Origin: Allolobophora icterica
Lineage: Eukaryota > Annelida > Clitellata > Crassiclitellata > Lumbricidae
Direction: 5' to 3'
DNA: 64,000 nt
Assembly (NCBI GenBank): GCA_963556255.1
Contig: OY744615.1
Location: 7,078,858 to 7,142,857, forward strand
Part shown: positions 9,541 through 27,445 of the stretch, piece by piece
Position numbering within the stretch: position 1 is the stretch's first letter
Layout of the letters: each line of letters opens with the position of its first letter
The notes under the pieces: generated by a model
Database searches by the model: none
What the model saw: the letters and a program-made list of their open reading frames with translations, nothing else
Told to the model about the DNA's origin: nothing
Made by a program: the position numbers and the translations under genes

Positions 9541-9857
9541 AGTAGATAGGGAACCAGACTTTGGGGGCACACCGTAATTCTATCAAAACTACCGGAAGAC
9601 GGCCTACAACACCCAGTTTTCTGGTCCCCACCACTCCATTATCTCACTGAATTAAGAGGATGCCGATCTATACCATCTAGGCTTCCAGAGGGTCCTGAAA
9701 CCCACGGTCAATTATAGCCAATCTACTTCCGGGCAGTCTGTTTGGGGACCAAACGAAAACGGCACGAACGCTTATAGCTTAGAAGTCCTCGAGTGTGACA
9801 ACTTTCACAGTGTGACGATAATATCTGTCACGAGTGTCACGTTTAAGCTAGGAGTGT
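9541..9857 (+). repeat. Polinton left terminal inverted repeat
   Basis: Starts AGTAGATAGGGAACC. It matches the reverse complement of 27963-28279 with only two differences that I noticed, one near 9832 and one at 9855, and no indels. Confidence 0.97.
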
Positions 9858-10067
9858 AATAACAGCTTTAAATATTTAAATTAGGAATATACGCCAAGTT
9901 GAATATATAAAAACGGTGCGGCGCTCCTGAGTAGGTATCTTGAAGGGGCTATTTTAAATTCACAGAACGAATGAATGAAAGAATGGAAATAGAGAGACTG
10001 AGAGAGAGGTAGAGAGATAGACAGAGACATTATTTTATCATAATCATAATTATACCATAATCATCAT

Positions 10068-10339
10068 CATAGGCGCCGACTTTTGGTTTTGTCTCTGGGT
10101 GCCAGTCAGGGGCGGATCCAGAAGGCTTATTTTTTTAGTCATCCGTCAAAAAATAAAAGGGGGCCATGTCTCCTAAAATTTGGCGACTTTTAGGAATTCA
10201 TCCCCATAAAAATGTAACGACCTTTTTAGGAATACCCCAAAATTTAATTTAAGGTCCGAATTCCTCTGGGGGCCAGGCCCCACCGAACTTTTTCTCTGGG
10301 TGCAATGCACCCAAGGCCCCCAAGAAGTCGGCGCCTATG
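10068..10339. mobile_element. hAT-type MITE nested in the Polinton
   Basis: The termini CATAGGCGCCGACTT and its reverse complement bound 272 bp of non-coding DNA. The 8-mer ATCATCAT flanks both ends (10060-10067, 10340-10347), matching the 8-bp target duplication of hAT transposons, although the 8-mer is low complexity. It inserted after the Polinton. Confidence 0.75.
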
Positions 10340-11048
10340 ATCATCATTACACCAGTAATATATACTTTTTTCGCTTAATACAGAAAGAAGTAGAATCACT
10401 ACTCACCAGATGATTGGTTTTTTTCTTGGGTGGATTTCCGTTTCGTCCTGTGCAGCAAGAATTGTCCTCAAGACCAAGACCAAAACCAATGTCAAGACTT
10501 TTGGTCTCAAGGGCAACAAGACCCCTGCTTGGACTCGTCAGGACGTGTTTTACACGCCGACGGCCTCCTCCCAGCTAACTGCTGGTCTTCCGCCCCCATG
10601 TGTAGAACACGATTGTTGAACGACAAATACTATGTAATGATATTTCAGGGTCTATTGTGTTGCCTGTATTGGAGTCGTCTAAACTTTTAGTGAAAAAAAA
10701 TAACGCACAAAAAGCTGCGGGCACAGGCTTATTTTGATGGCGGCCTGAACTCGCCACGTCACAAAGCTATCAATGGGCTCCTGCGGTTTTTAATTATGAG
10801 ACAAACGCCACTTTGCCACACACCGCGCCCTGATAACGATGCCAATATAAATCTTTAAAATTTTCACAGAGCTATGCTATACTCAGCCTTATACTGGCAC
10901 AGCATCAGCTAAAAAATCCGTAATAGCCAGGCTCGAAGGAAAATTTTTTACCATGTTAGGGCATCCGTCCTTATAACAGCGCCGTATGAGCTCAAAATTT
11001 GTTATAGCCTGGCTGTAAGGAAGAATTAAAATTTAGAGAATTTAACAA
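10340..11048. other. Polinton interior without recognised gene
   Basis: Short ORFs of up to about 86 codons appear near 10410-10690, but they lack any recognisable motif and overlap one another in different frames. I see no supported gene. Confidence 0.4.
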
Positions 11049-11393
11049 CTATAAATTAATATCATCGTCCTCCATATTCTCCACGACAGGTTCACCCAAG
11101 GCTGCTAAAATTGCATCTTCTACCTGTTGAGGCAGTTGTAAATTTTCACATTCAGAATCTGAATCTTCATTTACGCCTACCTTTAGCCCGTTAACTTTCT
11201 CACACAGCGACTTCCGTTCAATTGCGAGCTGCCTTAATTTTAACGCTGATTCATTCAGCCGTTGTTTCGTCTTTCTATAATTTTGATTTATTTTGCTAAG
11301 CTGCATTTCTGCAGATTTAATTTTCTCTTTTTTACTAACCTCTTTAAATGGAATATCAGCTAAAGCTCGCAAAAATTTCTGTTCCTTATCCAT
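11049..11393 (-). CDS. Small coiled-coil protein, possible Polinton accessory ORF
   Basis: 114 aa from an ATG at 11393. The first 75 residues are Lys/Glu/Leu-rich with heptad-like spacing (coiled coil). The C-terminal tail is strongly acidic and ends in EDDDINL. It lies between the left TIR and the capsid block, on the same strand as that block. I do not recognise a family. It could instead belong to another insertion in this repeat-rich end. Confidence 0.5.
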   Translation of the reverse strand: MDKEQKFLRALADIPFKEVSKKEKIKSAEMQLSKINQNYRKTKQRLNESALKLRQLAIERKSLCEKVNGLKVGVNEDSDSECENLQLPQQVEDAILAALGEPVVENMEDDDINL

Positions 11394-11747
11394 TTCGAAT
11401 GTTTATAGGAAGTTTACCGTTCAACAACCGTCTTCCGACACATGGGATGTCAATCCAGACTGAGCAGGTCCTATATATAAACACCCACGTTGCTCTGCCT
11501 GCCTGCCTGCCCACTTCCATTAGTAAGCATCAGAGACTCTTACGCGCAGCCTGGCCCAGCCACCAAAATTTGCGACGGTCCATATAAGTCGATAGTTAAG
11601 ACTCGCACAGAGACTGACAGGCGCGCGGCTACCCCAGCCTGGCCCAGCCAGCAAAGTTTAGCCCCAGAGCGGAACGCCCGCGTGCGGCTACGCCGCAAGG
11701 CTAGCGAGCAACGATACATGAGATTCATGACAATACAATGAATACAT

Positions 11748-11916
11748 ATGCATACATACATACATACATACATACATACATACATGCATACATATGCATA
11801 CATACATACATACATACATACATACATACATACATACATACATACATGCATACATACATACATACATACATACATACATACATACATACATACATACATA
11901 CATCCATACATACATA
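11748..11916. repeat. (CATA)n microsatellite
   Basis: About 170 bp of CATA tetranucleotides with a few CATG/CATC interruptions. Confidence 0.95.
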
Positions 11917-12069
11917 TTGCAAACCACTTTATGAGACACTTGATATTAACTATAGCTTTTGACTTAACCATTGTGCGGAGAACCGAAAAGGCAGACACAG
12001 GCCAACGCAGATGCAGGCAGAGACACACACAGAGGCGCACACAGGCACACACACAGAGGAAGACATATG

Positions 12070-12301
12070 CCCACATAGAGGCTTTAGGCTACATCATTCA
12101 ACGCTTGATATAAAACAGATGCGTATTATTTTCCATCATTGCAGCGGTCTCCGACAACCGCCTAATTGTGATTTATTGCTTTGTACCCACATAGAGGCTT
12201 TAGGCTACATCATTCAACGCTTGATATAAAACAGATGCGTATTATTTTCCATCAGTGCAGCGGTCCTTGACAACCGCCTAATTGTGATTTATTGCTTTGT
12301 A
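12070..12301. repeat. 116-bp tandem duplication
   Basis: The segment starting CCCACATAGAGGC at 12070 is repeated from 12186 with only a few substitutions. Both copies end in TTGCTTTGTA. Confidence 0.92.
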
Positions 12302-12416
12302 TTATATTCCATTAGTAAGCATCCTGTTTCACGTGATGTGGCTTTGTTTAGCGCTGAGAAATCTCGGGGATATAGGCCTACATTACATTTACGTAAAGTT
12401 CATCCATCATCCTTTC

Positions 12417-12462
12417 CATCCATCCATCCATCCATCCATCCATCCATCCATCCATCCATCCA
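12417..12462. repeat. (CATC)n microsatellite
   Basis: About eleven tandem CATC units. Confidence 0.95.
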
Positions 12463-13216
12463 CCGCGGAGAACATTTAGCGTGTTCAAACCAAAAAAGCT
12501 ACACTTAGAATATTTTTCTATAGCGCCTTAAAGATATAAATTTAAACTTTTTGAGTAGGGCCTATGTAGTAAACCTTGTATAACTTAGTCAGTATATATA
12601 GATATATTGTTAAATGTTTATTTATTCTGTCTGGAATTGAATTCTGCATATCTATTATATTTTCAATAGAAATTTTGTAGCCAGAAAATATGTTTTATAT
12701 GCGCTTGAACAAACATCTACAATCAGTTTTTACGGTGGTCTTCATTTTAGGCATTTTGGCGCAACTAATATAAATATTAAAAATCTTTTTGACGAAAGGA
12801 ATGAAAGAGGAGATAAAGTGCTAAAAATTAATGTTTACATTACATCAGTATGTTAAGAATTGACTTAGATATTGAAATTTCAAAATCTCCGTAGCTGATA
12901 AAAAATTCTGCTAGTTTTTTGAAGACATATGACGATTTTCGAAAAAATCCAGCACCCTTTCCATATAGTAGCATGACTTACCATGTTTTTACTAGTATGC
13001 GCTACGATTAAATCGATTTTAATACTCATTATTAAGTTTCTTGGTAATAGATGTATAATAGGGATTCAAAGTCACCCCCAAAATATGACCACATTATAGA
13101 CCCGTGTGCCATTTTTTAGATTAAAAATCATCTGCTTTCGTGGTCGTTAAAGGCATATGCTGGTGGCGCGCTAGGAATTACAGACTCACTACTCCAACCA
13201 CCTACGATGAAAACTT

Positions 13217-13822
13217 TTATTTTGAGGTTCGCGGACAAGTCCCAGTGCTGGTTAGTTTCTTTATTAGTTCCGCCACCATGTCGTCTTTGCTTTGACTCGG
13301 CAACTCTTTTTTTCCATTCTTGCTTTGTATATCACGTTTCATCGTTCTATATTTTTCCTCCTCTCCCAGAATAAGTTTATATTCATCGTCGCTTATAGCT
13401 GTGTCTTCCAAAGCCCGAGAAATATGGTCATGAACTGTGTTTAGCTTACTTTCCGCCAAAATACAAATTTCGTCGTGTTTTGAAGCTTTAGCAACAAACG
13501 ATCGGCTAACAACATTTCCAATAATATCCAGAAAACTCGTCGCTATGGCTAAACTCTCTAGAACAATACCAGGAATAAAACCAATACCAGTGGCTAACAT
13601 AGCTGCCCCACCCACCCCAGTTCCAAGACTAACTATAGCAAGGCCGGCCGAGGCCCCATTAGCCACATCTACAACCCTCTTATACTTCTTGCATAGTTGT
13701 CCCCGACTTATCGCCTCGGACCTCAGGAATGCTTCTATTTCGCCTATCTTCTGCAAGCGAAATGTTTGCGACGTCGTGTCTGACGAAATTGTTGACTCCA
13801 TCAGCGGTGGGTACAAAGACAT
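13217..13822 (-). CDS. Polinton membrane-associated protein of unknown function
   Basis: 201 aa from an ATG at 13822. A TATAAAAAAG motif lies only about 3 bp upstream. The N-terminal third is polar. Residues about 55-110 are glycine/alanine-rich and hydrophobic (GTGVGGAAMLATGIGFIPG), suggesting one or two membrane-inserting helices. The C-terminal half is charged and probably helical. The general layout recalls apolipoprotein-L/colicin-like pore or membrane-anchored proteins, but that is a resemblance, not an assignment. It is the last ORF of the minus-strand morphogenesis block, 6 bp after the next ORF, so it is probably co-regulated with the fibre gene. Confidence 0.7.
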   Translation of the reverse strand: MSLYPPLMESTISSDTTSQTFRLQKIGEIEAFLRSEAISRGQLCKKYKRVVDVANGASAGLAIVSLGTGVGGAAMLATGIGFIPGIVLESLAIATSFLDIIGNVVSRSFVAKASKHDEICILAESKLNTVHDHISRALEDTAISDDEYKLILGEEEKYRTMKRDIQSKNGKKELPSQSKDDMVAELIKKLTSTGTCPRTSK

Positions 13823-13828
13823 ACTTTT

Positions 13829-14383
13829 TTATAGTTGCTCTATCAGTAACGTTACGTTTAACTCAATAGTTGAAGTACTTAAAACGCCTCTCTTTTTTCC
13901 TTCAATTCGAAAACTCGTTTGTCCTGGAATGAATATTGCCCTAGATGCATCAAATTGTCCACTTTGAATGTCAACTGTACGATCGATGCTACCCCCAGCA
14001 GCTGCCGGTGCTATAACGCGAACTGTTGCATCACCACCGCAAACACCAAAGACTGTAAGCTTCCAGAACCCGCCCTCTAACGAAACCCCCTGATTGGTGG
14101 TTTGCAAAGTTATACACGGAAAACGCGCAGCGGTCAATGGAAGAGTTTGCCACGCAGTCGTGGTTACCGTTCCGGCCGCCGTATAGATATCGCGGTTGTG
14201 GTAATCGTCAGACACGAAGTCGATGTGCTGTTGAGGCACCGCGGTCAATAGCTCTGCGGTGGGCTTCGGGATGTCGTACCCCCAGTGGCCCACATCACCT
14301 AGACTGTCTATGCTGTATTTGCACATGTCTATTTCTCCGTGTTGACGGAGATACCCCCGAATCTTGTAGTGCGTGTCAGTCAT
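13829..14383 (-). CDS. Polinton small beta-rich structural protein (unknown)
   Basis: 184 aa from an ATG at 14383. TATAGAAAAAT lies immediately upstream, preceded by CAGTAG. The sequence is low in Lys and rich in alternating Val/Thr/Ile, especially in the C-terminal 90 residues (STIELNVTLLIEQL end), suggesting an all-beta fold. There is no signal peptide and no recognised motif. It lies 6 bp downstream of the 721-aa fibre gene on the same strand. A virion surface or fibre-associated role is an inference from that position only. Confidence 0.7.
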   Translation of the reverse strand: MTDTHYKIRGYLRQHGEIDMCKYSIDSLGDVGHWGYDIPKPTAELLTAVPQQHIDFVSDDYHNRDIYTAAGTVTTTAWQTLPLTAARFPCITLQTTNQGVSLEGGFWKLTVFGVCGGDATVRVIAPAAAGGSIDRTVDIQSGQFDASRAIFIPGQTSFRIEGKKRGVLSTSTIELNVTLLIEQL

Positions 14384-14389
14384 ATTTTT

Positions 14390-16555
14390 CTATACTACTG
14401 ACTGTCCTCCGTGTTTAAAATATGTATAGATCTGGAAGTGGGATATTCCAAAAGTAGCTTGTGTTGGGCTGGTGGCCAAGACCGACAGCCTGAATTTTTT
14501 GTATGCATCGTCATCAGAGAAGGTGAACTCTTGTGCAGAATTAGTCAAAGTGACATTGGAGGTGATGAGCACATAAAACATATTTTCAATATCGGATGGA
14601 ATCCCATGAAGCTTCCAGGACGTGATGCGTGGTGCAGTAGGACTAGATCCCCCAGCCAGACTAACCTTCCATATTCGCACAGGCGTCGGGCACTCAATCT
14701 GTAACCAAGTCCCACTACCCACAATATCGGCTCTCGATGTGGACGCCGTCTTCCACTCACCTCTCACACCGGAGTTGAATGCCATATGGGGCGGGTTAGT
14801 GGGTAAAGATTCGTTGGCTGAGGCAATAAAACCCGTTTCGGAAACGTTTCTGGATAGGGGCGGAATATGACCGCTGTAGTTGAGAATCTTGATGCCCGTC
14901 ACGTATCGCCTTTCATTAGCTATCTCACTGTCCACATACTGCTTGTTAGTCAAGTACTTTGGTCCCGCAGGCGCCGTATCATTATTCATAGTGGCATCAG
15001 TGATCAGCTGCGCCACTTGTTTTAAACTCGCGGCGTCACTATCGGATCCTGGAATTTCTGTTGGTAGCCCAGTCACTCTTTTACCACCCATAGCCAGATC
15101 ACCGGTCATGGTACTGCCGGATTTGAGCACGCACGCGTTCCTGACGATAACATCTTGCTCGTTGGCGTACCTCTTAGCAGCTTCAACTTTCTGGTCCGCA
15201 TAGAGTCTAACGGAAGCTCCAATCTCAGCGTTTTTCACGTCAACGTATCGTTTATTTGTCACATGCAACGGTTCTGTTGGTACTCTATCACTCTTTGTCA
15301 TGTTGTCGGCGATCAGCTTCGATACTTGTGCCATACTCGTCGCGTCGCTTTCGGACGTTGCTGCGCCCGTAGGGAGCCCAGTAACTCTTTTACCGCCCAT
15401 GATTAAATCACCAGTCATTGCATCACCAGCTTTAAGCACGCATGCGCTCCTAACGATAACATCTTGCTCGTTGGCGTACGTCTTAGCAGCTTCAGCTTTC
15501 TGGTCCGCATAGAGTCTAACTGAAGCTCCAATCTCAGCGTTTTTCGCGTCCACATACCGTTTGTTAGTCAAGTACTTTGGTCCCGCCGGCGCCGTATCAT
15601 TATTCATAGTGGCGCTGCTGATCAGCTGCGTCACCTGTTTCAAACTCGCGGCGTCGCTATCGGATCCTGGAATTTCTGTTGGCAGCCCAGTCACTCTTTT
15701 GCCACCCATGGTCAAATCACCAGTCATAGAATCGCCGGTTTTGAGCACATGCCCGCCTCTTACGATAGCATGCTTCTCGTCCACATATCTTCTAGCGGTG
15801 GTGACCTTCTCATCCACGTACTGTCTGTAAGAAGCGTCGCGGGAATCTACATACCGCTTATTCACCACATGCAACGACTCCGTTGGTACTCTATCGAGTT
15901 TTACTAGAGCGCCAGCGACCGCTGTTGACACTTGTTTCCAACTCGCTGCGTCGCTATCGGATCCTGAAATTTCTGTTGGGAGCCCAGTAACTCGGTGGCC
16001 ACCCATAACTAAACTTCCAGTCATTACGCCGCCTGATTTGAGCACGCACGCATTCCTGACGATAACATCTTGCTCGTTAACATAACTTTTAACAATAAGG
16101 TCCTTGTCATCTGCGTACCGCCTAACAGAATCTCTCAGCCCCGCATTCTTCTCGTCCGTGTACTGCCTGGCATCGATAAGTTTTTGGTCTGCATGATTTT
16201 CGGCTGCGGTCGCCTTCTGGTCCGCGTATCGTACCACTTGTGCCCAGCTCGCAGCGTCGCTATCGGACGTTGCTGTGTCTGTGGGCAGCCCAGTAACTTT
16301 GTGACCACCCATTTTTAGAACGCCAGACATCGTTCCACCGGTGATTTGTAAGTTGTCCTGATCTATGATGTCTGCATAAGCCTTTGTCGCGGCGTCTGTT
16401 TCCATCGTGGGCGTTCCCACGTTTGTCAGTCGAAAACCTCCAGCCGACAGAATTCCCATCATGGTATCACCCGCTTTGTGGACGAGCCCAGCGGCGCTTA
16501 TCTGCCCCCCTCCCACCCCACCTCCACCGTCTCTTCCAAATTTATCAACCGGCAT
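14390..16555 (-). CDS. Phage-tail-fibre-like repeat protein with discoidin-like head
   Basis: 721 aa from an ATG at 16555, with TATATAAAAA directly upstream. A Gly-rich N-terminus (residues 8-20) leads into about six repeats of roughly 100 aa. Each has a (S/T)MTGDLxMGGKRVTGLPT segment, then a Asp/Ser-rich turn, a helical AxxKQV stretch, and NKRYVD/KAYAD plus ADQK/NEQDVI segments. The MTGDLxMGGxxVTGLPT ... NKxYVD combination is the classic repeat of bacteriophage tail fibres. Residues about 549-721 form a different, beta-rich domain (GTWLQIECPTPVRIWKV, later YKKFRLSVLA and FGISHFQIYTYF) resembling an F5/8-type (discoidin) galactose-binding fold. I infer a trimeric virion fibre whose head binds a surface ligand. 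It sits between the protease and the 184-aa ORF. Confidence 0.85.
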   Translation of the reverse strand: MPVDKFGRDGGGGVGGGQISAAGLVHKAGDTMMGILSAGGFRLTNVGTPTMETDAATKAYADIIDQDNLQITGGTMSGVLKMGGHKVTGLPTDTATSDSDAASWAQVVRYADQKATAAENHADQKLIDARQYTDEKNAGLRDSVRRYADDKDLIVKSYVNEQDVIVRNACVLKSGGVMTGSLVMGGHRVTGLPTEISGSDSDAASWKQVSTAVAGALVKLDRVPTESLHVVNKRYVDSRDASYRQYVDEKVTTARRYVDEKHAIVRGGHVLKTGDSMTGDLTMGGKRVTGLPTEIPGSDSDAASLKQVTQLISSATMNNDTAPAGPKYLTNKRYVDAKNAEIGASVRLYADQKAEAAKTYANEQDVIVRSACVLKAGDAMTGDLIMGGKRVTGLPTGAATSESDATSMAQVSKLIADNMTKSDRVPTEPLHVTNKRYVDVKNAEIGASVRLYADQKVEAAKRYANEQDVIVRNACVLKSGSTMTGDLAMGGKRVTGLPTEIPGSDSDAASLKQVAQLITDATMNNDTAPAGPKYLTNKQYVDSEIANERRYVTGIKILNYSGHIPPLSRNVSETGFIASANESLPTNPPHMAFNSGVRGEWKTASTSRADIVGSGTWLQIECPTPVRIWKVSLAGGSSPTAPRITSWKLHGIPSDIENMFYVLITSNVTLTNSAQEFTFSDDDAYKKFRLSVLATSPTQATFGISHFQIYTYFKHGGQSVV

Positions 16556-16583
16556 TTTTTATATACAAAAAGGTGACGGAAGT

Positions 16584-16958
16584 CTAACATAAGTCAAGCA
16601 CGATATCTTCAAAATTCTTTCCAGCAGCGAGCTCTATTAGCACGGCTAGGCAGAGATGACCACATACCACATCATCTGGCCCCTGTAGCTGAAATGTTTG
16701 TGTTCTTATAGGATTTTTTAAATATCTAGAAATTTCGAGAGGCGGATCCAGCCCATAACTGTCAAAATAGACGGCTTTTGGTCCATCTATCCAATAGGCG
16801 ACCCAGTGAGTACCATCACCAGAACCGGAATCCAGATTAACAACTCCACACTCCTTCTCACGAGCCACGGCGGGCAGACCATCTCGCATGAAAACACCGC
16901 GGAAATGCGGCAGCGCTCTGGCAACTTTCTCTATGTCAAAGTTGCTCAGCGGTTTTAG
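16584..16958 (-). CDS. PRO: Adenain/Ulp1-like cysteine protease (PRO), -1 frame ORF
   Basis: The catalytic pattern of the adenovirus-type maturation protease is visible, counting from the internal Met at 16889: His28 (GTHWVAYW), Asp43 (YFDSYG), Gln69 (QGPDDVVCGHLC) and Cys76. Family members mature virion proteins. Coding homology typical of Polinton proteases (LSNFDIEKVA ... HFRGVFMRD) continues upstream of that Met, and no ATG lies between it and the in-frame stop near 16989. The frame is -1 relative to the 168-aa ORF, and it is entered exactly at an A_AAA_AAC heptamer (16964-16958). I therefore annotate it from the heptamer as the distal part (124 codons) of a frameshift product. An internal start at 16889 would lose conserved sequence. 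Confidence 0.88.
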   Translation of the reverse strand, partial: LKPLSNFDIEKVARALPHFRGVFMRDGLPAVAREKECGVVNLDSGSGDGTHWVAYWIDGPKAVYFDSYGLDPPLEISRYLKNPIRTQTFQLQGPDDVVCGHLCLAVLIELAAGKNFEDIVLDLC

Positions 16959-16964
16959 TTTTTT
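16918..16964 (-). promoter_or_regulatory. Putative programmed -1 ribosomal frameshift signal
   Basis: In the 168-aa reading frame the last codons are CAA AAA AAC TAA, giving the canonical slippery heptamer A AAA AAC (16964-16958) next to the stop (16957-16955). A stem follows after an 8-nt spacer: CTG-(bulged A)-GCAACTTT (16949-16938) pairs with AAAGTTGC-CAG (16928-16918) around a 9-nt loop. A one-base backward slip continues exactly in the protease frame. Slippery site, spacer and stem match retroviral-type signals. Function is inferred. Confidence 0.8.
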
Positions 16965-17461
16965 TGTCTGATGTAGAGACCCGATCCTTTACACATTGGG
17001 CAACAACCACCACGAGTCTCACGCCCGAGATATAAACCAGTCCCGCGGACCTGGGCCTCGAGTTCGCGATTGTGACGCGCCGCCTCCGCCAGTGCAGCGT
17101 CGCTGGCCTGTTTGCTCTGCACAGCCTTTACTACCCCAGCGGTCCCACCAGCCACGGCACCCGCCGCGGATAACCCACCAAAAAGCAGCGGGAGGAGAGC
17201 CAGTAGTGGAAGAAATCCACCCATTTTAGTCATCTTTTTCAACTGCGTTTTGGTGAATCTCAGCTCCATGCCAACGCCTTCCGAAATCTTCTTCACGATT
17301 CGGGCGGCTTGAACTTTCGTAAGCGCGAGCTTATCGTTTCCGCGAAGCTGGCCATGAGTGAGCCGGATCGTGGCGCCAGTGCCGGCACGCGCAGCTTTAG
17401 CCAATGTTTGCTTTTGCCCTTCGGTCAGTGAAAGGCCGAACGCAACGTATTCAGTTTTCAT
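16955..17461 (-). CDS. Small Polinton virion-like protein with hydrophobic segment, upstream partner of PRO
   Basis: 168 aa from an ATG at 17461. The N-terminal half has two or three degenerate LTxxQxxxxxKAARxG...L-type units (LSLTEGQKQTLAKAA, LTKVQAARIVKKISEG, LRFTKTQLKKM), seen in many invertebrate Polinton proteins. A strongly hydrophobic stretch follows (GGFLPLLALLPLLFGG, about residues 82-97), then an Ala-rich helix, and a Cys-rich end (CCPMCKGSGLY). It resembles the small basic/hydrophobic cement or core proteins of adenovirus-like virions, but I cannot name a family. Translation ends at TAA 16957-16955. A fraction is predicted to continue into the protease by -1 frameshift. Confidence 0.8.
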   Translation of the reverse strand: MKTEYVAFGLSLTEGQKQTLAKAARAGTGATIRLTHGQLRGNDKLALTKVQAARIVKKISEGVGMELRFTKTQLKKMTKMGGFLPLLALLPLLFGGLSAAGAVAGGTAGVVKAVQSKQASDAALAEAARHNRELEAQVRGTGLYLGRETRGGCCPMCKGSGLYIRQKN

Positions 17462-17518
17462 TTTTGGAAAAAATATATCTAAAAGAGGACCTTGTATCTA
17501 AATGTGAAAAACCGATTT

Positions 17519-18814
17519 CTAGTAGACGACGTTGAATTTGCTGCCATCCGATTCAAAATTCAGGAGTCGGTCGCTGATCAGGACGGCATATGCCGTCGTA
17601 TTATTTGGTACCCCTTCGTTAAAGTCCACCTTGATTTGTATGTCCTGTACAGAGGTTTTAAGTCGTTCAGATTGCCTGCGCACGTCCAGAACGAAGATCG
17701 GAAACAAATCTACAAATTCGATTGGTGTCGGTTGGCATGACGATTCACGCGCGTCTATGCCGCAATATTCTTCCTTGAAGTCACGTAGGGCCTTGTAAGC
17801 GCGAGAGGTTGTCCTCTTGGTGAAGTCGAGATTCATGTCAACCACGGGGTAGCGATCGGTGTTGAGCATAGCGAATATGTTGCGAACCTGTGCATGGTCA
17901 AACAGTGCCGGATTCTGGCCTTGATGTGCATTCTTTCCAGTCTGAAAAGCAACAAGAATCCAGCGTGGCTTTTCCGTGCCCGACTTAACGCTCAAACGCC
18001 AGGAAAAAGTCGTCGCTCGTGGCACCGCAATGTTGTCGCATTGCATGGCGCGGAATGCCACAGGTACCTTAACCTTGGCTTCAATCTGCTTCATAAGCAT
18101 GCTTTTATACTCCAGAGCGGGTATTATATGCGGCATGAACCAGGAGAGTTTAGTCAGCGCGATCTGGCCATTGGTCGCTGCGGCTTCCTTGAAGATCGCG
18201 TCTGCATCTCCCTGCCGGCTCAGCAGTAAGGAGTGTTTAATCCCGTATACGACTTTGTGGTAATCATCGCAAAAGCCGAATAGATGTCTTAAGGGAACGA
18301 TGAATGAAAACGTTCCAATAGGGACGGGTTTTCCAATGATCATCAGTCGACGGGCCTCGAAGCCGATATTCGCGGTCGCCGCCGCCGCACTCGTGTCCTT
18401 CTGCCAACACATGTTTAAACCTTCGCCTTTGGAGAAGTCGTCGCCGTATACCAGCATGCCTTTCATCGTCGTGGCTTGCCCAGGAGACATGACATTCTCT
18501 ATCTCGGTGTTGTTAGCCAGGTATCGAATCTGAGAGAACATGTACGGGATGGCGTTGTTGATGAATGACACCAACGAGTCTGCGATGTAAGCCGCACCAG
18601 TTGATGTAAGCCTGCCCTCCACAAGAAGGTAACTTTTAGAAGGTTGCGTGAAAATGTCTTGGTTCTGGATGTCTATCTGTATGGCCTGGCCATTGTTAAT
18701 AGCCGCAGGGTTTTGTGATTCATACTCGCGGTATTCAAACGATTCGATGCTATTATCATCGGGTACCGCCGAAGCGATGTCCAACATTTCACTCGGCACG
18801 TCAAATGCCGCCAT
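17519..18814 (-). CDS. MCP: Polinton major capsid protein (double jelly-roll)
   Basis: 431 aa from an ATG at 18814, with TATAATA just upstream. Conserved Polinton MCP stretches are present near the N-terminus: NQDIFTQPSKSYLLVEGRL, then NNAIPYMFSQIRYLANN and PGQATTMKGMLVYG. Later beta-strand-rich segments include PVPIGTFSFIVPLRHLFGF. In this family the protein forms pseudo-hexameric capsomers of an icosahedral capsid. The length is within the range for Polinton MCPs and the frame is open throughout. It lies between the small hydrophobic protein and the pVI-like ORF, the usual structural block. Confidence 0.9.
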   Translation of the reverse strand: MAAFDVPSEMLDIASAVPDDNSIESFEYREYESQNPAAINNGQAIQIDIQNQDIFTQPSKSYLLVEGRLTSTGAAYIADSLVSFINNAIPYMFSQIRYLANNTEIENVMSPGQATTMKGMLVYGDDFSKGEGLNMCWQKDTSAAAATANIGFEARRLMIIGKPVPIGTFSFIVPLRHLFGFCDDYHKVVYGIKHSLLLSRQGDADAIFKEAAATNGQIALTKLSWFMPHIIPALEYKSMLMKQIEAKVKVPVAFRAMQCDNIAVPRATTFSWRLSVKSGTEKPRWILVAFQTGKNAHQGQNPALFDHAQVRNIFAMLNTDRYPVVDMNLDFTKRTTSRAYKALRDFKEEYCGIDARESSCQPTPIEFVDLFPIFVLDVRRQSERLKTSVQDIQIKVDFNEGVPNNTTAYAVLISDRLLNFESDGSKFNVVY

Positions 18815-18929
18815 TATTATAAGTAAAAAAGTTCAAGCTTCAATTATTAATCATGCTGTAAATGAAATTCAGGTGTGGTGGGTAAAGCATTTTTTGCGTT
18901 TTATGAATTAGTCGGAAATTTTTTTTATT

Positions 18930-19361
18930 TTATTTTGCGAGAAACAGACCCCTACCACCACGACTCGGCTTTATAGTCTTGAAACCAGATCCAGCAATGC
19001 GGCTGTTTATGTCAGCCATTGTCGGAACAACGGGTGGCGGACTTACAGCCAGTTGTTTTAAGTACTCGATGCTCTTGTCGCTGAGCGCCTTCTCCAAAGG
19101 TGCGGGAACCGCTACTGGTGCTTTTGCGCCGGCAACAGCGCGTCTCGCTTTCACGGCATCAACGATTTGCCTGACGGCAGACGCTGTTGTGGCCCCAGCT
19201 TTCACAACATTACCAACCACCTTGGCAACGTTTGTGATTGCGCCTTTATTAGCCGAAATGAAGGATCCGGCACGTCCTAGCAAGCCCGCGATTTTGGGTA
19301 TCCAGTCGAAAAGTCCACCACCCACTACACGACGCCGCTTTTTAATTCCAAGAACCAACAT
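18930..19361 (-). CDS. Basic amphipathic pVI-like virion protein
   Basis: 143 aa from the ATG at 19361. An open frame extends to a GTG at 19391, inside the preceding gene, but ATG is preferred. A basic start (KKRRRVVGGG) leads to LFDWIPKIAGLLGRAGS, an amphipathic helix. An Ala/Val/Lys helix, a Pro-rich linker and a basic RGGRGLFLAK end follow. This order resembles membrane-active minor core proteins of adenovirus type (pVI). The VVGGG word is close to, but not identical with, the adenain cleavage consensus, so processing by PRO is plausible but unproven. It follows the minor capsid gene directly. Confidence 0.7.
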   Translation of the reverse strand: MLVLGIKKRRRVVGGGLFDWIPKIAGLLGRAGSFISANKGAITNVAKVVGNVVKAGATTASAVRQIVDAVKARRAVAGAKAPVAVPAPLEKALSDKSIEYLKQLAVSPPPVVPTMADINSRIAGSGFKTIKPSRGGRGLFLAK

Positions 19362-19383
19362 TAGAATATTTAAGTGTGAACAT

Positions 19384-20175
19384 TTACGCACTGCGGATGT
19401 GAAACCTTATAGTTACTGTCTCACCGCGGAGGTTTAATTGTTCACCATTTTGGTCGGTCAGCCACACACGAATGCCCTGTACGTTGCCAGCCGGTGCTAC
19501 TGGTAGGTACACTAGATTTTTCGGAGACTCGATTACCTTATAGCCGGGCGACACATCCGGGAAAAAACTGTAGATAACTGGCAGCTGGCTACCATTGCGA
19601 TACGATCCAGAGATAATGTCACAATTTACCAGGATTGTGTCCACCCGGAGAATATCGACTGGATTTTCTCCCTCTTTATAACCACTACCAAGCCTCTGAG
19701 GGTTAAAACCGAGCATTTGCCTGATGGTAGATTGAGCCATATTTACCTTATATAGAGCATTCGTAATTTTTATGAAGGCGCGAAGGGTAGATGCGTTGGC
19801 TCCTATGGTAATAGGAGAATTAAAGCCGAGTGGTGTCACACCCGTCGGAGAATTTTGCTTTTCTAACTGCCTGCCGATTTCATCATTAATCTGTGCGATC
19901 TCGTAGCTTCCGTCGGGCAAAATGATCGTCTTCCACGTCACACCATTGTCGGTGCTGTAGACGAACTTGTTATTTGAGCTGTCAATGTTCGGAATAGAAT
20001 TATAAGTTTCAAGATTGACCAAAGCAAGCTCAAAGCGTCTTTTTGGATCCAGGTACAGCGGTGGTGAGAAAGCCGTGGTCCACCCTGTAGTATCTGAGGA
20101 AACAACTATACTAAAATTTTCCTTAGGCTGCAAAAGTTCTCGAATTTCTTCGAGCAGTTTCTCCGAGCGTTCCAT
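19384..20175 (-). CDS. mCP: Polinton minor capsid (penton) protein
   Basis: 263 aa from an ATG at 20175. Short helical N-terminus, then a beta-rich body. Family-typical stretches are RFELALVNLETYNSIPNI, TIRQMLGFNPQ and the C-terminal GIRVWLTDQNGEQLNLRGE segment ending in TIRFHIRSA. In the family this single jelly-roll protein fills the five-fold vertices. The gene lies between the PX-like protein and the pVI-like ORF, on the same strand as the MCP. Confidence 0.85.
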   Translation of the reverse strand: MERSEKLLEEIRELLQPKENFSIVVSSDTTGWTTAFSPPLYLDPKRRFELALVNLETYNSIPNIDSSNNKFVYSTDNGVTWKTIILPDGSYEIAQINDEIGRQLEKQNSPTGVTPLGFNSPITIGANASTLRAFIKITNALYKVNMAQSTIRQMLGFNPQRLGSGYKEGENPVDILRVDTILVNCDIISGSYRNGSQLPVIYSFFPDVSPGYKVIESPKNLVYLPVAPAGNVQGIRVWLTDQNGEQLNLRGETVTIRFHIRSA

Positions 20176-20185
20176 CTTGTGTATT

Positions 20186-21307
20186 TTATTTTATGAGCAT
20201 GTTTCTATTCAATTCGAGTGCCAGCTCTTTGGAGATCGCACCGGAACGCAGTAACTCGTCGAGAATGGCGGAGATTTCGTTGCCGAGACCTGTGTTTCCC
20301 GCGGCCCTAGAGGCCACCAAAAGCTGCAACCTCTCTACCAGGGCGTTTGGGTCATTATAGAATTGCACCGCCCCGCCCCGAATCAGCTGGAACTTTTTAC
20401 TTTTCCGGCCATGAATAGGCAGACCAGACATCTGTACGAGCTTTTTGAAAGTTTCAATTGCCTGAGGCGAATATTGCTTAGTCTTAACGAAGCGTTTCGT
20501 TAACAGGCTGAACAATGACTCATCGGCAGGAGCTTCGAGCACGAGGTTCCCACCTTTAAACACTCTTAGTCTACCAGGAGACAGGGCGACGGGGTCAACG
20601 GAGAGCTCACCCAAGGCGTTACCTTGCAATTTCAGAGGAACGGCTGGAACACTGAAACCCTTTCCTTTTTTAGTGAGGGCGTGGCCTTTCAATAGCAAAC
20701 GAATTCGATCTCTGTAGTCCTGTAGGACGCCGATATCTACGGCCAGCGCATGTACCTTTTCTTCGTCTCCGTTCTTATTGGCCTTCCTTTTCGCTTTGCC
20801 CAGGGTGTGGCGATTATAATAATTTACGCCTTCGATTATCTGTTTCACAGCTGCCGTGTCGTTCAGGTCGAGCTCGCTCGGAGGGGTAAAACCGTGCCGC
20901 CTGATTGTATCGACGTTGAGATGTCTGTTTGGGTGGACGAGCAATGCTTCCGCTGGAGCAGATGCTCCTGCGGCGGGGTGTGCCGCAATCGCCGGAAGGG
21001 CTGGAGGAGCAGTTGCTCCAACGGAATCACCGAACAACGCCGCTATCGGGTTAAAATTAGCAGACTCTGAAATCTGCGCCGGCAAATCCTGTAAAGCGCT
21101 GGTAACTTTCTGCAGCTCCTTAGACGTAGCCACCTGGGATTCAGCCGTGGCTGTGGCTATTGGTTTAAAAAGCTTTGCCGCATCGTACTGAAGGTTGGCT
21201 TCACCGAGCTTCTCATCCACGAAACGCTGTCTCAATCGATTTCTGCGAGCTAAGTAATCCTGAGTTAACGCGTCTCGCTCCTGTTTAGAAGAAACCTTTG
21301 TCCACAT
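20186..21307 (-). CDS. PX-like Polinton protein with coiled coil
   Basis: 373 aa from an ATG at 21307. The N-terminal 90 residues are helical and charged (QERDALTQDYLARRNRLRQRF), suggesting a coiled coil. An Ala/Pro-rich linker follows. From about residue 180 comes a globular part with LLLKGHALTKKGKGF, then a Phe/Leu-rich segment (DESLFSLLTKRFVKTKQYSPQ) and a Lys/Arg-rich GRKSKKFQLIRGG. The C-terminal half resembles a conserved Polinton protein (DUF8207/PX-type), which I cannot verify here. It is next to the ATPase and penton genes, so a structural role is likely. Confidence 0.72.
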   Translation of the reverse strand: MWTKVSSKQERDALTQDYLARRNRLRQRFVDEKLGEANLQYDAAKLFKPIATATAESQVATSKELQKVTSALQDLPAQISESANFNPIAALFGDSVGATAPPALPAIAAHPAAGASAPAEALLVHPNRHLNVDTIRRHGFTPPSELDLNDTAAVKQIIEGVNYYNRHTLGKAKRKANKNGDEEKVHALAVDIGVLQDYRDRIRLLLKGHALTKKGKGFSVPAVPLKLQGNALGELSVDPVALSPGRLRVFKGGNLVLEAPADESLFSLLTKRFVKTKQYSPQAIETFKKLVQMSGLPIHGRKSKKFQLIRGGAVQFYNDPNALVERLQLLVASRAAGNTGLGNEISAILDELLRSGAISKELALELNRNMLIK

Positions 21308-21347
21308 CGTGGTTGTATGTCGACTATATGTTGCCTATATCATGTCT

Positions 21348-22034
21348 TTAAATACTTGCCTTGGGCTTATAGAAGCGATCGAACCCGCAGCGATATTTTC
21401 CATCGTACACTTTGGACGTCAAATCTATGACTGCGAATCCATATGGTTGGGCAGCGCACTCGCTGAAGAACGTACGGAATTCATCGAAAGACATGTCGCC
21501 GCCCACGAACGTATCGTGAATGGCTCGCAAATTTTTGCTGTCTTGGTTGAAGAGGACGATAAGATTAGCATTGTCACGGATCGCTTGCTTCGGAATTCGA
21601 AAATAATTCTGCGTTAAGTAGAAGCAGTCCGCGCCACCGTGTCGACCCATAGTGAAATACCTTTCGATGGGCGACTGTTTTTCAAGCATGACGTCATCGA
21701 AAACTAGAAGGCTTCTGGCATTCTTATTTAATGATTCAACTGGAACTATTTCATCTGAGCAAGAGTGAAAGGAAGCCACTTCCTTACCGGCAACTTTTTC
21801 GAGTTCTGTTATCCAGTCCCGAAGAAACTGATATTTTTCCTGTCCCAGAGACTTTGAGTATAGATAGAGCCGGTCAAAACGTAGGTACCCCTTCTTCAGA
21901 AGGAGGTTGAGTAGTAGGTTTGTTTTTCCACATCCGCTAGGCCCACAGATTATGCATCGTATGCTTGATGGCAACAACCAATGGTGGTGTTTTTTCCCAT
22001 CGTCGGCTTCGAGATCGAAATTTGTTATTTCCAT
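21348..22034 (-). CDS. ATP: Genome-packaging ATPase (A32/FtsK-HerA type)
   Basis: 228 aa from the ATG at 22034. The frame is open further upstream to 22181, but that extension lacks conserved sequence and overlaps the divergent gene. Walker A is GPSGCGKT at residues 31-38. Walker B is the SLLVFDDVM segment at about 105. A sensor-like QNYFRIPKQAIRDNANLI segment follows. This family translocates viral DNA into preformed capsids. TCTATATG surrounds the start codon, so any 5' leader is very short. Transcription is divergent from the plus-strand gene that starts at 22073, sharing a gap of about 40 bp. Confidence 0.92.
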   Translation of the reverse strand: MEITNFDLEADDGKKHHHWLLPSSIRCIICGPSGCGKTNLLLNLLLKKGYLRFDRLYLYSKSLGQEKYQFLRDWITELEKVAGKEVASFHSCSDEIVPVESLNKNARSLLVFDDVMLEKQSPIERYFTMGRHGGADCFYLTQNYFRIPKQAIRDNANLIVLFNQDSKNLRAIHDTFVGGDMSFDEFRTFFSECAAQPYGFAVIDLTSKVYDGKYRCGFDRFYKPKASI

Positions 22035-22072
22035 ATAGAGACAACGAGTTATGATTGTATTCAACGAACACA

Positions 22073-22627
22073 ATGTATTGCCTACGATGTAAGAAACATA
22101 CTGAGACTTCAAATGAAACAATCGTCGAGTTACGAAACGGTCGGCCAGCCAAGAAGGGAACCTGTGCCGTCTGCGGTGCAAAGAAGAGCCAAATTTTGCC
22201 TTCGAAAGCGCGAAAGACTGGTGGTTCTCTACTGAATAGGGCCCTCAACGCTCTTCCTCTGCCTGAGATGCATATGAGTCTTCCATCCGGTATGTCTTCG
22301 GAAGATAATCCGGGAGGTTCTTTTCAGAATACGGGAAAGTACTCTTACTGTGGACCATTCACAAAACTCGATAAACGGCTGTCACAGCGCTATCGCGGTG
22401 TTAATCAGCTCGACCGTGCGTGCCTCCACCATGATGTGGCTTACGCAGTTCATAAAGATACTCCGGGGCGTAACCACGCAGATGACATCCTCGCTGCAGC
22501 CGCGTCGAAGATCGCACTCACCGATGAAACTCCAGATTATGAGAAGAAGGATGCGCGGCTGGTATCGGCCATTATGTCAGCGAAGTCGAGGCTGGGGATG
22601 GGTGTCAGAACAAAGGGCCATAAATGA
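22073..22627 (+). CDS. DUF5679 zinc-binding / phospholipase-A2-like fusion protein
   Basis: 184 aa from ATG 22073. The N-terminal 40 residues (MYCLRCKKHTET ... CAVC) match the small Polinton DUF5679 zinc-ribbon, with CxxC pairs at 3/6 and 31/34. After a linker, residues about 90-145 carry the elements of a parvovirus-VP1/secretory-type phospholipase A2: YCGPF-T-LD calcium loop (92-96), LDRACLHHDVAY with the His-Asp catalytic pair (113-124), then HADDIL (135-140). In viruses such a domain can breach endosomal membranes during entry. That role here is inference. It is followed after 75 bp by the integrase on the same strand. Confidence 0.85.
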   Translation: MYCLRCKKHTETSNETIVELRNGRPAKKGTCAVCGAKKSQILPSKARKTGGSLLNRALNALPLPEMHMSLPSGMSSEDNPGGSFQNTGKYSYCGPFTKLDKRLSQRYRGVNQLDRACLHHDVAYAVHKDTPGRNHADDILAAAASKIALTDETPDYEKKDARLVSAIMSAKSRLGMGVRTKGHK

Positions 22628-22702
22628 GTTTCATTTATGAAAACGCAAATGAAAATCATTTGTGTATGTGTTTACCTGTTTGTAATATATAGTTTTACTG
22701 AA

Positions 22703-23716
22703 ATGTCTAAGCACCTTTCAGCCGTCTATTACAGCCCTAGAGGTTACTGGCGAGGTAAGGCTGCGGTGAAGAAACTAGCCTCAGCCGCCAAAGTTTCCGA
22801 GGCGGAGGCTCGTGATTGGCTGAAGAAACAAGCGGTATGGCAGATTTATCTTCCCGTTCCACGCCGCATACCGCGTCCAAAGTTCGATGAAAATCGACCA
22901 AACGCCGTACACCAAGCCGATCTCTTGTTTTTGCCTCACGATAAAGTAGGTCGAAAGACTTATAAATACGCTCTCACTGTTGTTGATGTTGCCTCACGAT
23001 ACAAAGAAGCTGAACCGTTGATAAACAAAAGTGCGACCGAAGTCGCCGCCGCTTTAAGCCGGATCTATAAGAGGGGTCCATTGACTTGGCCTCGACTCTT
23101 TCAGGTCGATCCTGGACGCGAATTTATGGGTGATTTTACACCGTTGTTGGTGAAGCGCGGCGTTCTTGTAAGACGCGGACAGGCCGCAAATCATCGCCAA
23201 CAGGGCATCGTTGAACGCTTTAACCGTACTCTAGCTGAGCGACTCTTCGGTGCTCAATACGCTCAGGAATTGCTCCTGGATGCAAGGGGGTCATCCGAAC
23301 GGTCAGTGGAATGGGTTCGACGATTGCCCGAAGTTGTAGCTGCACTAAACGATGAGCCGACGCGCTTGCTCGACATGAAGCCGGTTGAAGCGATGAAAGC
23401 TGCTAAAGTGACACAGAAGCCCTCTCATTCACAAATGAAAACTCGTTTGTGGGGCTTGGATGAGCCTATTCTTGGACACGACGTTCTCGTTCGGTACTTG
23501 TACGCTCCCGGCGAGCTCGAAGGTGGAAGCAAACGTGCCACCGATCCTAACTGGTCGCTCACCATCCACGCTATTTTGGATGTTGTTCGGCAGGCTGAGC
23601 AACCGGCTTTATACCATCTAGTTGATGGGCCTGGCCGCGGTTTTGTCCGTGAGGAGCTGCTTCTGGTGCCTATGGGCACTGAGCTACCCCCCGATAGAAT
23701 ACTCAACCGTCGTTGA
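22703..23716 (+). CDS. INT: Polinton RVE-family integrase
   Basis: 337 aa from ATG 22703 (MSKHLSAVYYSP). An in-frame upstream ATG at 22637 would add a hydrophobic leader not typical of the family. The catalytic triad is visible: Asp73 (HQADLLFLP), Asp136 (FQVDPGREF) and Glu171 (QGIVERFNR), a D-x-D-34-E arrangement. An N-terminal helical region with AxEARDWLKKQ precedes it. The C-terminus (VLVRYLYAPGELEGG ... VREELLLVP) looks like an SH3-type DNA-binding fold. I see no chromodomain. The enzyme inserts the excised element and would produce the short target duplication. It is convergent with the polymerase, 27 bp apart. Confidence 0.95.
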   Translation: MSKHLSAVYYSPRGYWRGKAAVKKLASAAKVSEAEARDWLKKQAVWQIYLPVPRRIPRPKFDENRPNAVHQADLLFLPHDKVGRKTYKYALTVVDVASRYKEAEPLINKSATEVAAALSRIYKRGPLTWPRLFQVDPGREFMGDFTPLLVKRGVLVRRGQAANHRQQGIVERFNRTLAERLFGAQYAQELLLDARGSSERSVEWVRRLPEVVAALNDEPTRLLDMKPVEAMKAAKVTQKPSHSQMKTRLWGLDEPILGHDVLVRYLYAPGELEGGSKRATDPNWSLTIHAILDVVRQAEQPALYHLVDGPGRGFVREELLLVPMGTELPPDRILNRR

Positions 23717-23743
23717 TTTTGTAGTGCCCATATGCCAGCGTTG

Positions 23744-26700: not shown

Positions 26701-27445
26701 CATTAATAACCGTACGAGGGGGTATATACTTTGGTGTGGGAAAGTAGCTCTTACCTCGGAAAGGCTTATATCTTGCAACACTGAGATCTAGCGCCACGAC
26801 CCGCTTCACCCTCCACCCCGATCCCTCATTCGTGTAATCCTCGACAAGTTTTAATACTTCGGCCTTGGCCTTCCGTATAGCCCCTTGGACTTTACCTGCA
26901 TTGGTGATTGGTGCTGCTGTGCTTCGAAAGTAGGCGGTATTGGTAATGATGCCGGGGGGCGCGTTGCCACCATACACATTATCAACGGTCGGTGCCAACT
27001 TTTCCAAATCGACAGTCAACACTTGAGAGTATTTCAAACCGCCATTTTTCAAAAGCTCTTCGTTGAGTTGCGCCTCAATGCTGTGCTCCATTGTACTCAA
27101 GAAAGCCAACGCATCTCTTTCCAGCCTGTGGTTAACAGGTACTTCTGCACGGAAGTCTCTCAGAAGCTGATTGGCGAGCTCTTTGTGCACAAGAAAGGGT
27201 GGTGGTCCACCTCTATCCTTCTTAAGTAGGAGTGGGTCAAATTCTGCCAGAAGGGCCTTACGTTTTGCCCCTCTGCGTTTGCGCACTGGGGGGATTGGCC
27301 TTGGTAGCAGTGGTTGAAGTAAGCGCCTTTTGAGTGCGTCTGGGATAGGTTCGTCTAAGATATTCTGCAGAACAGCCCGAAGAGCTGGGGGACCGGTAAA
27401 CTCGCCCAACAGTTGTTCAATTTTTTCATTCGTAGACAATGCCAT
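23744..27445 (-). CDS. pPolB: Protein-primed family B DNA polymerase
   Basis: 1233 aa from an ATG at 27445. Order: N-terminal Polinton-specific region; KNKDNRCFEWAILSA segment (about 270); C2H2-like CRRCLHIF...DAHIKDC (about 370-395); ExoI YADFEAL (about 428); an endonuclease-VII-like CHICGNAL...RDHCHITGKYRGAAHNACN zinc/HNH module (about 525-560); ExoII NLRGYDSHLI (about 573); motif A DANNLYGWAM (about 825); motif B KLANNAVFGKT (about 990); motif C YTDTDSLLF (about 1087). All catalytic motifs are intact. The enzyme replicates the element from a protein primer. CAGTAGTATAAAATAA precedes the start and recalls the leader of the 184-aa ORF. Confidence 0.96.
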   Translation of the reverse strand: MALSTNEKIEQLLGEFTGPPALRAVLQNILDEPIPDALKRRLLQPLLPRPIPPVRKRRGAKRKALLAEFDPLLLKKDRGGPPPFLVHKELANQLLRDFRAEVPVNHRLERDALAFLSTMEHSIEAQLNEELLKNGGLKYSQVLTVDLEKLAPTVDNVYGGNAPPGIITNTAYFRSTAAPITNAGKVQGAIRKAKAEVLKLVEDYTNEGSGWRVKRVVALDLSVARYKPFRGKSYFPTPKYIPPRTVINVKNKDNRCFEWAILSAMYPVGHGQNPDRQTKYQAHLRELNFDGIEFPVKVTDIGKFERQNQNISVSVFGWNEGLYPICVSKQTNRDYNIDLLLLVSGENYHYVWIKDRGRILHKNSKDNNRKHPCRRCLHIFGRQDLLDAHIKDCQGISEKPQRIEMPKEDENILKFQNHRKQMQTPYIIYADFEALNIPIEGAVMNPSESNTRQIAEQKPCSFCYIVVRYDGRTKKPVLYRGENAVQQFLQRIQGELDSIKQRLATPAKMVMSAADRQSFREAIECHICGNALEADRVRDHCHITGKYRGAAHNACNLKLRIYPDKCKVPVVFHNLRGYDSHLIMQAIGSCEAAQDEETEINCIPNNMEKYMTFNIGQLQFIDSLQFLNSSLDKLSGNLSLEDLKVTTTYINEKNHNERTKLDLLRRKGVYCYEYIHDYHRFEEDRLPPKEAFYSKLTRESISDEDYQHAQRVWDEFDCKTLGDYHDLYLRTDVLLLADVFETFRSTSMKHYSLDPANYFSLPGMAWDALLKKTKIELELLTDIDMHLFVEKGLRGGISMVSKRFAKANNPQCPDHDTTKPENWIMYLDANNLYGWAMQQPLPVGGFSWASPTLNEVLETADDAPEGFLLEVDLEYPEHLHDAHNDYPLAPETLTVQEEWLSDYQNVLMNELGSKFTKHVKLVPSLRPKEQYVVHYRNLKLYHSLGLRVAKIHRAIKFRQEAWMAPYIEMNTKLRAKATSEFEKDFFKLANNAVFGKTMENLRKRIRVNLVPSSKVDKLRKLIADPAYISHKIFNDQLAAIHSLKNKLKLNRPVYVGQAVLDLSKHLMYDFWYNDVKNEYGEKAQLLYTDTDSLLFQVETPNVYTDMWNKKHQYDLSEFPRDSPHYDVENKKVVGKFKDECNGVAIAQFVGLRPKMYSILKSGGSEIRKAKGVQRAVVKKDLHHELYKECLFEREEMRHTQVVIRSHDHQIGVYEQNKISLSPLDTKSGYLRTE

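What the first reader, a model, noticed from the sequence alone, without database searches (positions are those of the whole stretch)
16918..16964. Programmed -1 ribosomal frameshift predicted to express the Polinton protease
The protease ORF has no ATG ahead of its conserved N-terminal segment. Its frame is -1 to the preceding 168-aa ORF. At the end of that ORF the codons are CAA AAA AAC TAA, which is a textbook A_AAA_AAC slippery heptamer touching the stop. An 11-bp stem with one bulge (CTG-GCAACTTT with AAAGTTGC-CAG) begins 8 nt downstream. A one-base slip leads straight into the conserved protease sequence. Retroviruses express gag-pro this way; I know of no description for Polintons. It would tie the amount of protease to a small virion protein and deliver the protease into particles as a fusion.
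Basis: partly seen in the sequence, partly recalled or inferred. Interest (0 to 1): 0.9.

Follow-up and report, generated by a model that had tools for sequence, protein, structure and literature searches.

The report
Slippery site feeding a Polinton protease
In a virus-like transposon called a Polinton, the adenovirus-type protease gene has no start codon ahead of its conserved part and lies behind a slippery sequence that recurs in relatives, so ribosomes are predicted to reach it by slipping back one base at the end of the preceding gene, as retroviruses do.

Summary
A PX-like ORF ends CAA AAA AAC TAA and the adenain-type protease continues in the -1 frame, with no ATG from that frame's upstream stop to codon 23 after the junction. 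Of 101 copies read in the same genome (53 haplotypes), 98 keep A7-C-TAA while flanking codons vary. Elsewhere, 18 of 25 PX relatives with a CPxC-type tail end Lys-Asn-stop, and in the 6 of 120 proteases that could be solved with a PX tail as two frames of one DNA, A_AAA_AA[C/T] lies in frame at, or one codon before, the stop. A distant IMG/VR contig has the same layout, its -1 frame closed directly before the A-run. A-runs of 6, 7, 8 and 11 in constant phase favour ribosomal over transcriptional slippage. Against: 12 of 16 KK-bearing relatives have an in-frame Met upstream, the stem is neither conserved nor covarying, and other clades start the protease at their own Met. A 2024 preprint already suggested hypothetical Hexon-Adenain slippage in adintoviruses; my searches found no PX-protease shift. 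Verdict: very likely a programmed -1 frameshift making a PX-protease fusion in some Polinton clades; no product has been shown.

The parts
9541..28279 (.). Whole Polinton/Maverick element between terminal inverted repeats (arms 9541-9857 and 27963-28279, 317 nt, 99% complementary)
   Evidence: PolB PF03175 E 6.7e-23, integrase rve PF00665 E 5.8e-9, Pox_A32-type ATPase E 2.9e-8, double-jelly-roll capsid PF21738 E 2.4e-54
16955..17461 (-). PX-like small protein ORF, 168 aa (zero frame); likely virion core protein
   Evidence: Adeno_PX PF05829 E 0.0054, below Pfam's cut-off; PF05829 precomputed on relatives P0266, P0277, P0290
16958..16964 (-). Slippery heptamer A_AAA_AAC at the last sense codons of PX
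   Evidence: A7-C-TAA in 98 of 101 copies; phase kept in relatives and in L001
16955..16957 (-). Zero-frame stop TAA directly after the heptamer
16918..16949 (-). Stem-loop 8 nt downstream: CTG-a-GCAACTTT / AAAGTTGC-CAG, 9-nt loop; possible but unproven stimulator
   Evidence: z -3.66; not conserved or covarying
16584..16988 (-). Adenain-type protease frame (-1 relative to PX), open 134 codons; entered after the shift at CTA 16958-16956; conserved part starts at 16949
   Evidence: profile of 30 rows matches adenovirus proteinase 1avp E 1.3e-5; model pLDDT 89.8, best fold match 1nln E 3.5e-7
16989..16991 (-). Stop TAA closing the protease frame upstream; no ATG lies between it and the heptamer
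16887..16889 (-). First ATG of the protease frame, inside FRGVFMRD; starting here would remove the first helix and nearly all of the first strand

Best explanation
The Polinton's adenovirus-type protease, whose frame has no ATG ahead of its conserved start, is predicted to be made as a PX-protease fusion when some ribosomes likely slip back one base on A_AAA_AAC, the last sense codons of the PX-like gene. Shown: the ORF layout, the phase of the heptamer, the missing ATG in this genome's copies, and the recurrence of the heptamer in relatives. Inferred: most ribosomes would stop at TAA and make PX alone. A minority would re-pair AAA/AAC as AAA/AAA, skip the stop and read on into the protease. 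The fusion would set a low, fixed protease:PX ratio and could carry the protease into the particle on a likely DNA-binding core protein. A downstream stem may help in many copies but is not obligatory.
For: (1) Copies: 98 of 101 have A7-C-TAA, 2 have A8 and 1 has A6, over 53 different 120-nt haplotypes. In 51 aligned copies the 13 nt CAAAAAAACTAAA do not vary, whereas 52% of the 200 columns upstream and 16% of the 200 downstream do. (2) No ATG in the protease frame upstream of the heptamer in 80 of 81 copies, also where that frame is open for 96-169 codons. (3) PX relatives: 18 of 25 with a CPxC-type tail end Lys-Asn-stop; none of the other 38 listed does, some of which are truncated. What precedes varies in sequence and length. 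(4) Protease relatives of the window's 31-row clade: 14 of the 15 that extend upstream of the LSN-like motif carry KK[L/V] there; 13 of the 15 others were called from an internal Met. (5) Solving PX tail and protease head as two frames of one DNA works for 6 of 120 proteases against 59 PX tails, all six with A_AAA_AA[C/T] in the PX frame; in P0018/P0266 the C is forced. (6) L001, protease 41% identical: ACT AAA AAA AAA AAC with the -1 frame stopped (TAC TAA) just before the A-run and no ATG until FMRN. (7) A_AAA_AAC is named among the most shift-prone heptamers on mammalian ribosomes in PMC5009743 (passage).
Against: No product was seen. Of the 16 relatives with KK at the site, 12 begin with an in-frame Met upstream (P0002-P0005, P0009, P0011-P0013, P0015, P0018, P0037, P0088) and P0017 with a Met directly before KK, so separate initiation is possible there. 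Seven sister-clade rows start MPLSN. P0007 has no KK; P0012 (KKV) and P0259 (KK-stop) imply A_AAA_AAG instead. Relatives' DNA, L001 apart, was inferred from proteins, and several of the two-frame fits are between close kin or over only 6 codons (P0006). The stem, the usual stimulator, is not conserved. L001 is one contig with an 11-A run, so an assembly indel is possible. The copies in this genome share recent ancestry and look mosaic.
Confidence: 0.83

Rival explanations
1. The protease is translated on its own, from a non-AUG start near CTG 16949, from the internal ATG 16889 or, in relatives, from a Met inside the PX gene.
For: Gene callers place many relatives' starts at MRD or similar, and 12 of 16 KK-bearing relatives have an in-frame Met upstream. 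One copy, L033, has ATG in place of the CTG.
Against: The CTG is CTT or TTG in many copies, and CTT is not a usual start (recalled). The internal ATG would delete the first helix (16-23) and nearly all of the first strand (29-34) of a confident model. In this genome no upstream ATG exists in 80 of 81 copies. None of these explains the recurring A_AAA_AAC.
Confidence: 0.08
2. RNA polymerase slips on the A-run and altered transcripts join PX and protease in one frame.
For: A homopolymer run lies at the junction; the two A8 copies have long fused frames (L068, L084). L001 has 11 A.
Against: The run is as short as A6 in the fits P0002/P0247 and P0018/P0266, 7 in nearly all copies here and 8 in P0001/P0251 and P0013/P0262. 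Run length varies while the heptamer phase stays.
Confidence: 0.05
3. Splicing supplies a start or joins the frames.
For: The window has CAG just before the A-run and an AG in CTGAG.
Against: That CAG occurs in only 3 of 81 copies. The stretch before CTGAG is A-rich, without a pyrimidine tract.
Confidence: 0.03
4. The layout is decay or sequencing error with no expressed protease.
For: The elements are integrated repeats; 2 of the 150 copies scored have a stop inside, and a few have fused frames.
Against: The layout recurs in 98 of 101 copies and in relatives. The protease frame is uninterrupted in 150 of 150 and 148 of 150 scored copies, though scoring favours intact ones.
Confidence: 0.01

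Closest known systems
Retroviral gag-pro -1 frameshifting (mouse mammary tumour virus, HTLV; PMC5009743, passages; that MMTV uses A_AAA_AAC is recalled)
   Same: Protease placed -1 behind an abundant virion protein, slippery site near its end, predicted fusion at low ratio.
   Different: DNA transposon/virus with a cysteine protease of the adenain type instead of an aspartic protease; the upstream protein is PX-like, not capsid; no conserved stem or pseudoknot found; stop directly after the heptamer.
Hypothetical Hexon-Adenain ('Hexain') slippage in adintoviruses (PMC11071296, section 16 read)
   Same: The same protease type, reached by a predicted -1 slip, in the same broad virus group.
   Different: There the upstream gene is Hexon, and the section gives one sentence, following KnotInFrame predictions for Penton; here it is the PX-like gene, with comparative evidence for the slippery site.
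Adenovirus adenain (AVP) and pX/mu
   Same: Fold and sequence of the protease; weak Adeno_PX match of the upstream protein.
   Different: Adenain is translated from a late L3 mRNA alongside hexon and pre-pVI (PMC8537868 passage); that passage mentions no frameshift.

Membership tests
Programmed -1 ribosomal frameshift site (X_XXY_YYZ) | In-phase slippery heptamer before the zero-frame stop | tested here: met
   A_AAA_AAC at 16964-16958, TAA next; A7-C-TAA in 98 of 101 copies
Programmed -1 ribosomal frameshift site (X_XXY_YYZ) | Downstream -1 frame conserved and without its own start | tested here: met
   In this genome: no upstream ATG in 80 of 81 copies, protease conserved. In relatives mixed: 12 of 16 KK-bearing rows have an upstream in-frame Met
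Programmed -1 ribosomal frameshift site (X_XXY_YYZ) | Heptamer conserved in divergent relatives | tested here: met
   (inferred from proteins), L001 DNA; clade-limited
Programmed -1 ribosomal frameshift site (X_XXY_YYZ) | Stimulatory structure a few nt downstream | tested here: inconclusive
   Present in this copy, z -3.66; z +1.48 to -3.43 over 24 haplotypes; pairs no better than shuffles; none notable in L001
Programmed -1 ribosomal frameshift site (X_XXY_YYZ) | Frameshift product formed | not testable with these tools
   Needs a reporter, profiling or mass spectrometry
Polinton/Maverick | TIRs, PolB, rve integrase, A32-type ATPase, DJR capsid, adenain-type protease | tested here: met
Adenain (peptidase C5) | Sequence and fold of adenovirus protease | tested here: met
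   1avp E 1.3e-5 by profile, 1nln E 3.5e-7 by fold; PF00770 matches 17 of 30 rows, best E 0.0026, but not the window's own protein
Retroviral gag-pro system | Aspartic protease fused to Gag in a retrovirus | tested here: not met
   Adenain-type cysteine protease in a DNA element with PolB and TIRs; works like it, is not a member

The most novel reading that the evidence does not exclude
A lineage of Polintons, and by the same layout in a distant IMG/VR element possibly a much older stock of adenovirus-like viruses, makes its maturation protease only as a frameshift fusion to its DNA-core protein: a DNA-virus counterpart of gag-pro that tethers the protease to the packaged genome and fixes its dose.
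Probability: 0.5. Interest if true: 0.85.

Novelty: new variant of a known kind. Interest (0 to 1): 0.72.

Why it matters
Polintons that carry capsid genes are suspected to be viruses, and how they express and package their protease is, to my knowledge, not established. A recurring shift site gives a directly testable answer, would show retroviruses and DNA transposons arriving at the same solution, and may explain why gene callers truncate this protease in many relatives.

Tried and rejected
Stem as a conserved element: not borne out. CTG start and splice acceptor: not conserved. Transcriptional slippage: disfavoured by A6 relatives. Searches that gave nothing: window protease, two capsid alignments and the PX alignment in viral contigs; capsid alignment in genome contigs; L001's protease found only L001's own contig again. 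Of 11 PX/protease pairs tried by hand, 3 fitted; P0017 and P0259 share a contig length but do not fit, unresolved. The adintovirus founding paper (PMC8502044) is not held. A search of the own genome for other Polinton families (P0052 as query) and a genome-wide count by DNA pattern did not complete.

Full report
1. The site. The window holds a Polinton on 9541-28279 with 317-nt terminal inverted repeats, a PolB, an rve integrase and an A32-type ATPase and a double-jelly-roll capsid gene. The junction lies on the minus strand. The PX-like ORF (17461-16955) ends CAA AAA AAC TAA. The protease frame is -1 to it, closed upstream by TAA 16991-16989, and its first ATG is 16889. The details of the finding are correct. 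A_AAA_AAC occurs in frame once in 3953 sites of ten ORFs of the element; looser slippery heptamers occur 13 times.

2. The proteins. The protease frame is an adenain-type cysteine protease: an alignment of the window and 29 relatives matches adenovirus proteinase in the PDB (1avp, E 1.3e-5). The window's own protein has no Pfam match; 17 of the 30 rows match PF00770, best E 0.0026. Its model (mean pLDDT 89.8) is closest to adenovirus 2 proteinase (1nln, E 3.5e-7). Residues ahead of the first ATG form the first helix and nearly all of the first strand, so a start there is implausible. The upstream protein matches Adeno_PX only weakly (E 0.0054, below cut-off); three relatives carry PF05829. That it is a DNA-core protein is inference.

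3. Copies in the same genome. The genome is 1.12 Gb; two protease queries gave 1646 and 1642 candidates, of which 150 each were scored. I read the junction in 100 of these copies plus the window: 98 of 101 have A7-C-TAA, two A8 (L068, L084), one A6 (L090), over 53 haplotypes of 120 nt; L083, counted as A7, has an extra C before the run. Forty of the 100 were chosen by me, mostly for low identity or odd frames. In the first 51, no site varies in 13 nt around the heptamer, against 52% variable columns in the 200 upstream and 16% in the 200 downstream, indel columns included. Six longer invariant runs exist (17-35 nt), all downstream in the protease part; the longest listed upstream is 10. In 81 copies the protease frame has no ATG upstream of the heptamer in 80, even where it is open for 96-169 codons; L068 is the exception. 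In 80 of 81 the first ATG is 23 codons downstream; L033 has one at codon 3. PX is at least 150 codons in 78 of 81. Recent shared ancestry and apparent recombination limit what these copies prove.

4. Relatives elsewhere. Few DNA records were reachable, so I used proteins of the two frames. PX: 63 hits; 25 have a CPxC-type tail, 18 of these end Lys-Asn-stop. The seven others: P0242 (reads KKTRTSEQF, fitting an A-run of other length), P0252, P0254, P0258, P0259 (KK), P0266 (KN plus one residue), P0275. P0248, missed by the motif, ends PKK. Protease: the best 120 of 2802 hits. In the window's clade (31 rows, support 100/99), 15 of the 30 other rows extend upstream of the LSN-like motif and 14 of them have KK[L/V] there; P0007 does not. 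The other 15 were called from Met or Val at or inside the conserved part. The sister clade of 22 has KKQ in P0018, KKR in P0037, seven MPLSN starts and 13 truncated calls. A 54-row group (support 91/92) begins at a Met ahead of motifs such as LPNKPLSN. Of the 16 KK-bearing rows, 12 begin with an upstream in-frame Met, three with Val or Leu, and P0017 with a Met next to KK; these starts are gene callers' choices and lie where PX is encoded in the other frame, but they leave separate initiation open in those relatives.

5. Two frames at once. Treating tail and head as two frames of one DNA, 6 of 120 proteases (P0001, P0002, P0005, P0006, P0013, P0018) fit at least one of 59 PX tails over 6 or more codons, all with A_AAA_AA[C/T] in the PX frame; the stop follows directly in five and one codon later in P0018/P0266. 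P0001/P0251 and P0013/P0262 have equal contig lengths and so probably share a contig; the other fits are by compatibility only, and P0006 overlaps just 6 codons.

6. A distant case. IMG/VR contig L001 encodes a protease 41% identical in its best segment, followed by an ATPase and a repeat-rich ORF. Ahead of it is a 207-aa ORF with weak PX resemblance (hhalign E 0.00068, probability 27%). That ORF reads ACT AAA AAA AAA AAC CCA GAG TTT TAA; the -1 frame has TAA immediately before the A-run, so nothing upstream can start it. An assembly indel in 11 A cannot be excluded.

7. The stem. It is strong locally but weak in wider context. Over 24 haplotypes z runs from +1.48 to -3.43; paired cells are 81.4% against 81.1% in shuffles, with one double change; the consensus fold is -2.27 kcal/mol. 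The slid controls give 35-60%, as expected when the structure comes from one of the rows. I read it as optional.

8. Mechanism. Shown: phase, heptamer, missing ATG here, recurrence. Inferred: the slip, the fusion, its low ratio and its packaging. Neither the PX tail nor the protease frame holds an adenain-type cleavage motif ([MIL]xGGx or [MIL]xGxG, recalled), but PX has one at LFGGL (93-97), and 51 of 59 PX relatives have an [MIL]xGGx; the motif also occurs in other ORFs of the element. Release of the protease is therefore open.

9. Prior work. Searches for Polinton, Maverick, adintovirus or adenain with frameshift terms and one for frameshifting in DNA viruses gave one relevant text, PMC11071296 (section 16 read; passages): hypothetical slippage at Penton 3' ends and a 'similar relationship' for Hexon-Adenain fusions. 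I saw passages of PMC10120064, PMC8537868, PMC12567637 and PMC5009743, and only the listing of the other papers. Nothing seen describes a PX-protease shift. The library lacks most subscription journals and the adintovirus founding paper.

Noticed in passing
G000 (own genome): Very high copy number: over 1600 first-look candidates for the protease; the 150 scored are 97-100% identical and uninterrupted, suggesting recent or ongoing amplification.
   Followed up: partly
L002-L102, PX end and protease start: Haplotypes look mosaic: different PX 3' ends occur with the same protease start and the reverse, as if copies recombine around the junction.
   Followed up: no
L032-L035, L037, L038, L041, L054, L058, L066, L080: The -1 frame is open for 96-169 codons upstream of the heptamer yet has no ATG.
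   Followed up: partly
window 17005-16976 (-) and PX relatives: The PX C-terminus has a CCPMCKGSGL motif, like half of a DnaJ-type CxxCxGxG zinc site (recalled); 25 of 63 listed PX relatives have a CPxC-type tail.
   Followed up: no
window 22055-22627 (+); P0299: An ORF with a YCGPFTKLD...DRACLHHDVAY segment that looks like a phospholipase A2 domain (by eye); P0299 carries a precomputed PF08398 together with a PX-like end.
   Followed up: no
window 14390-16558 (-): A 722-aa ORF of repeated TGDLxMGGxxVTGLP...KRYVD units, possibly a fibre; L001 has a similar repeat ORF after its ATPase.
   Followed up: no
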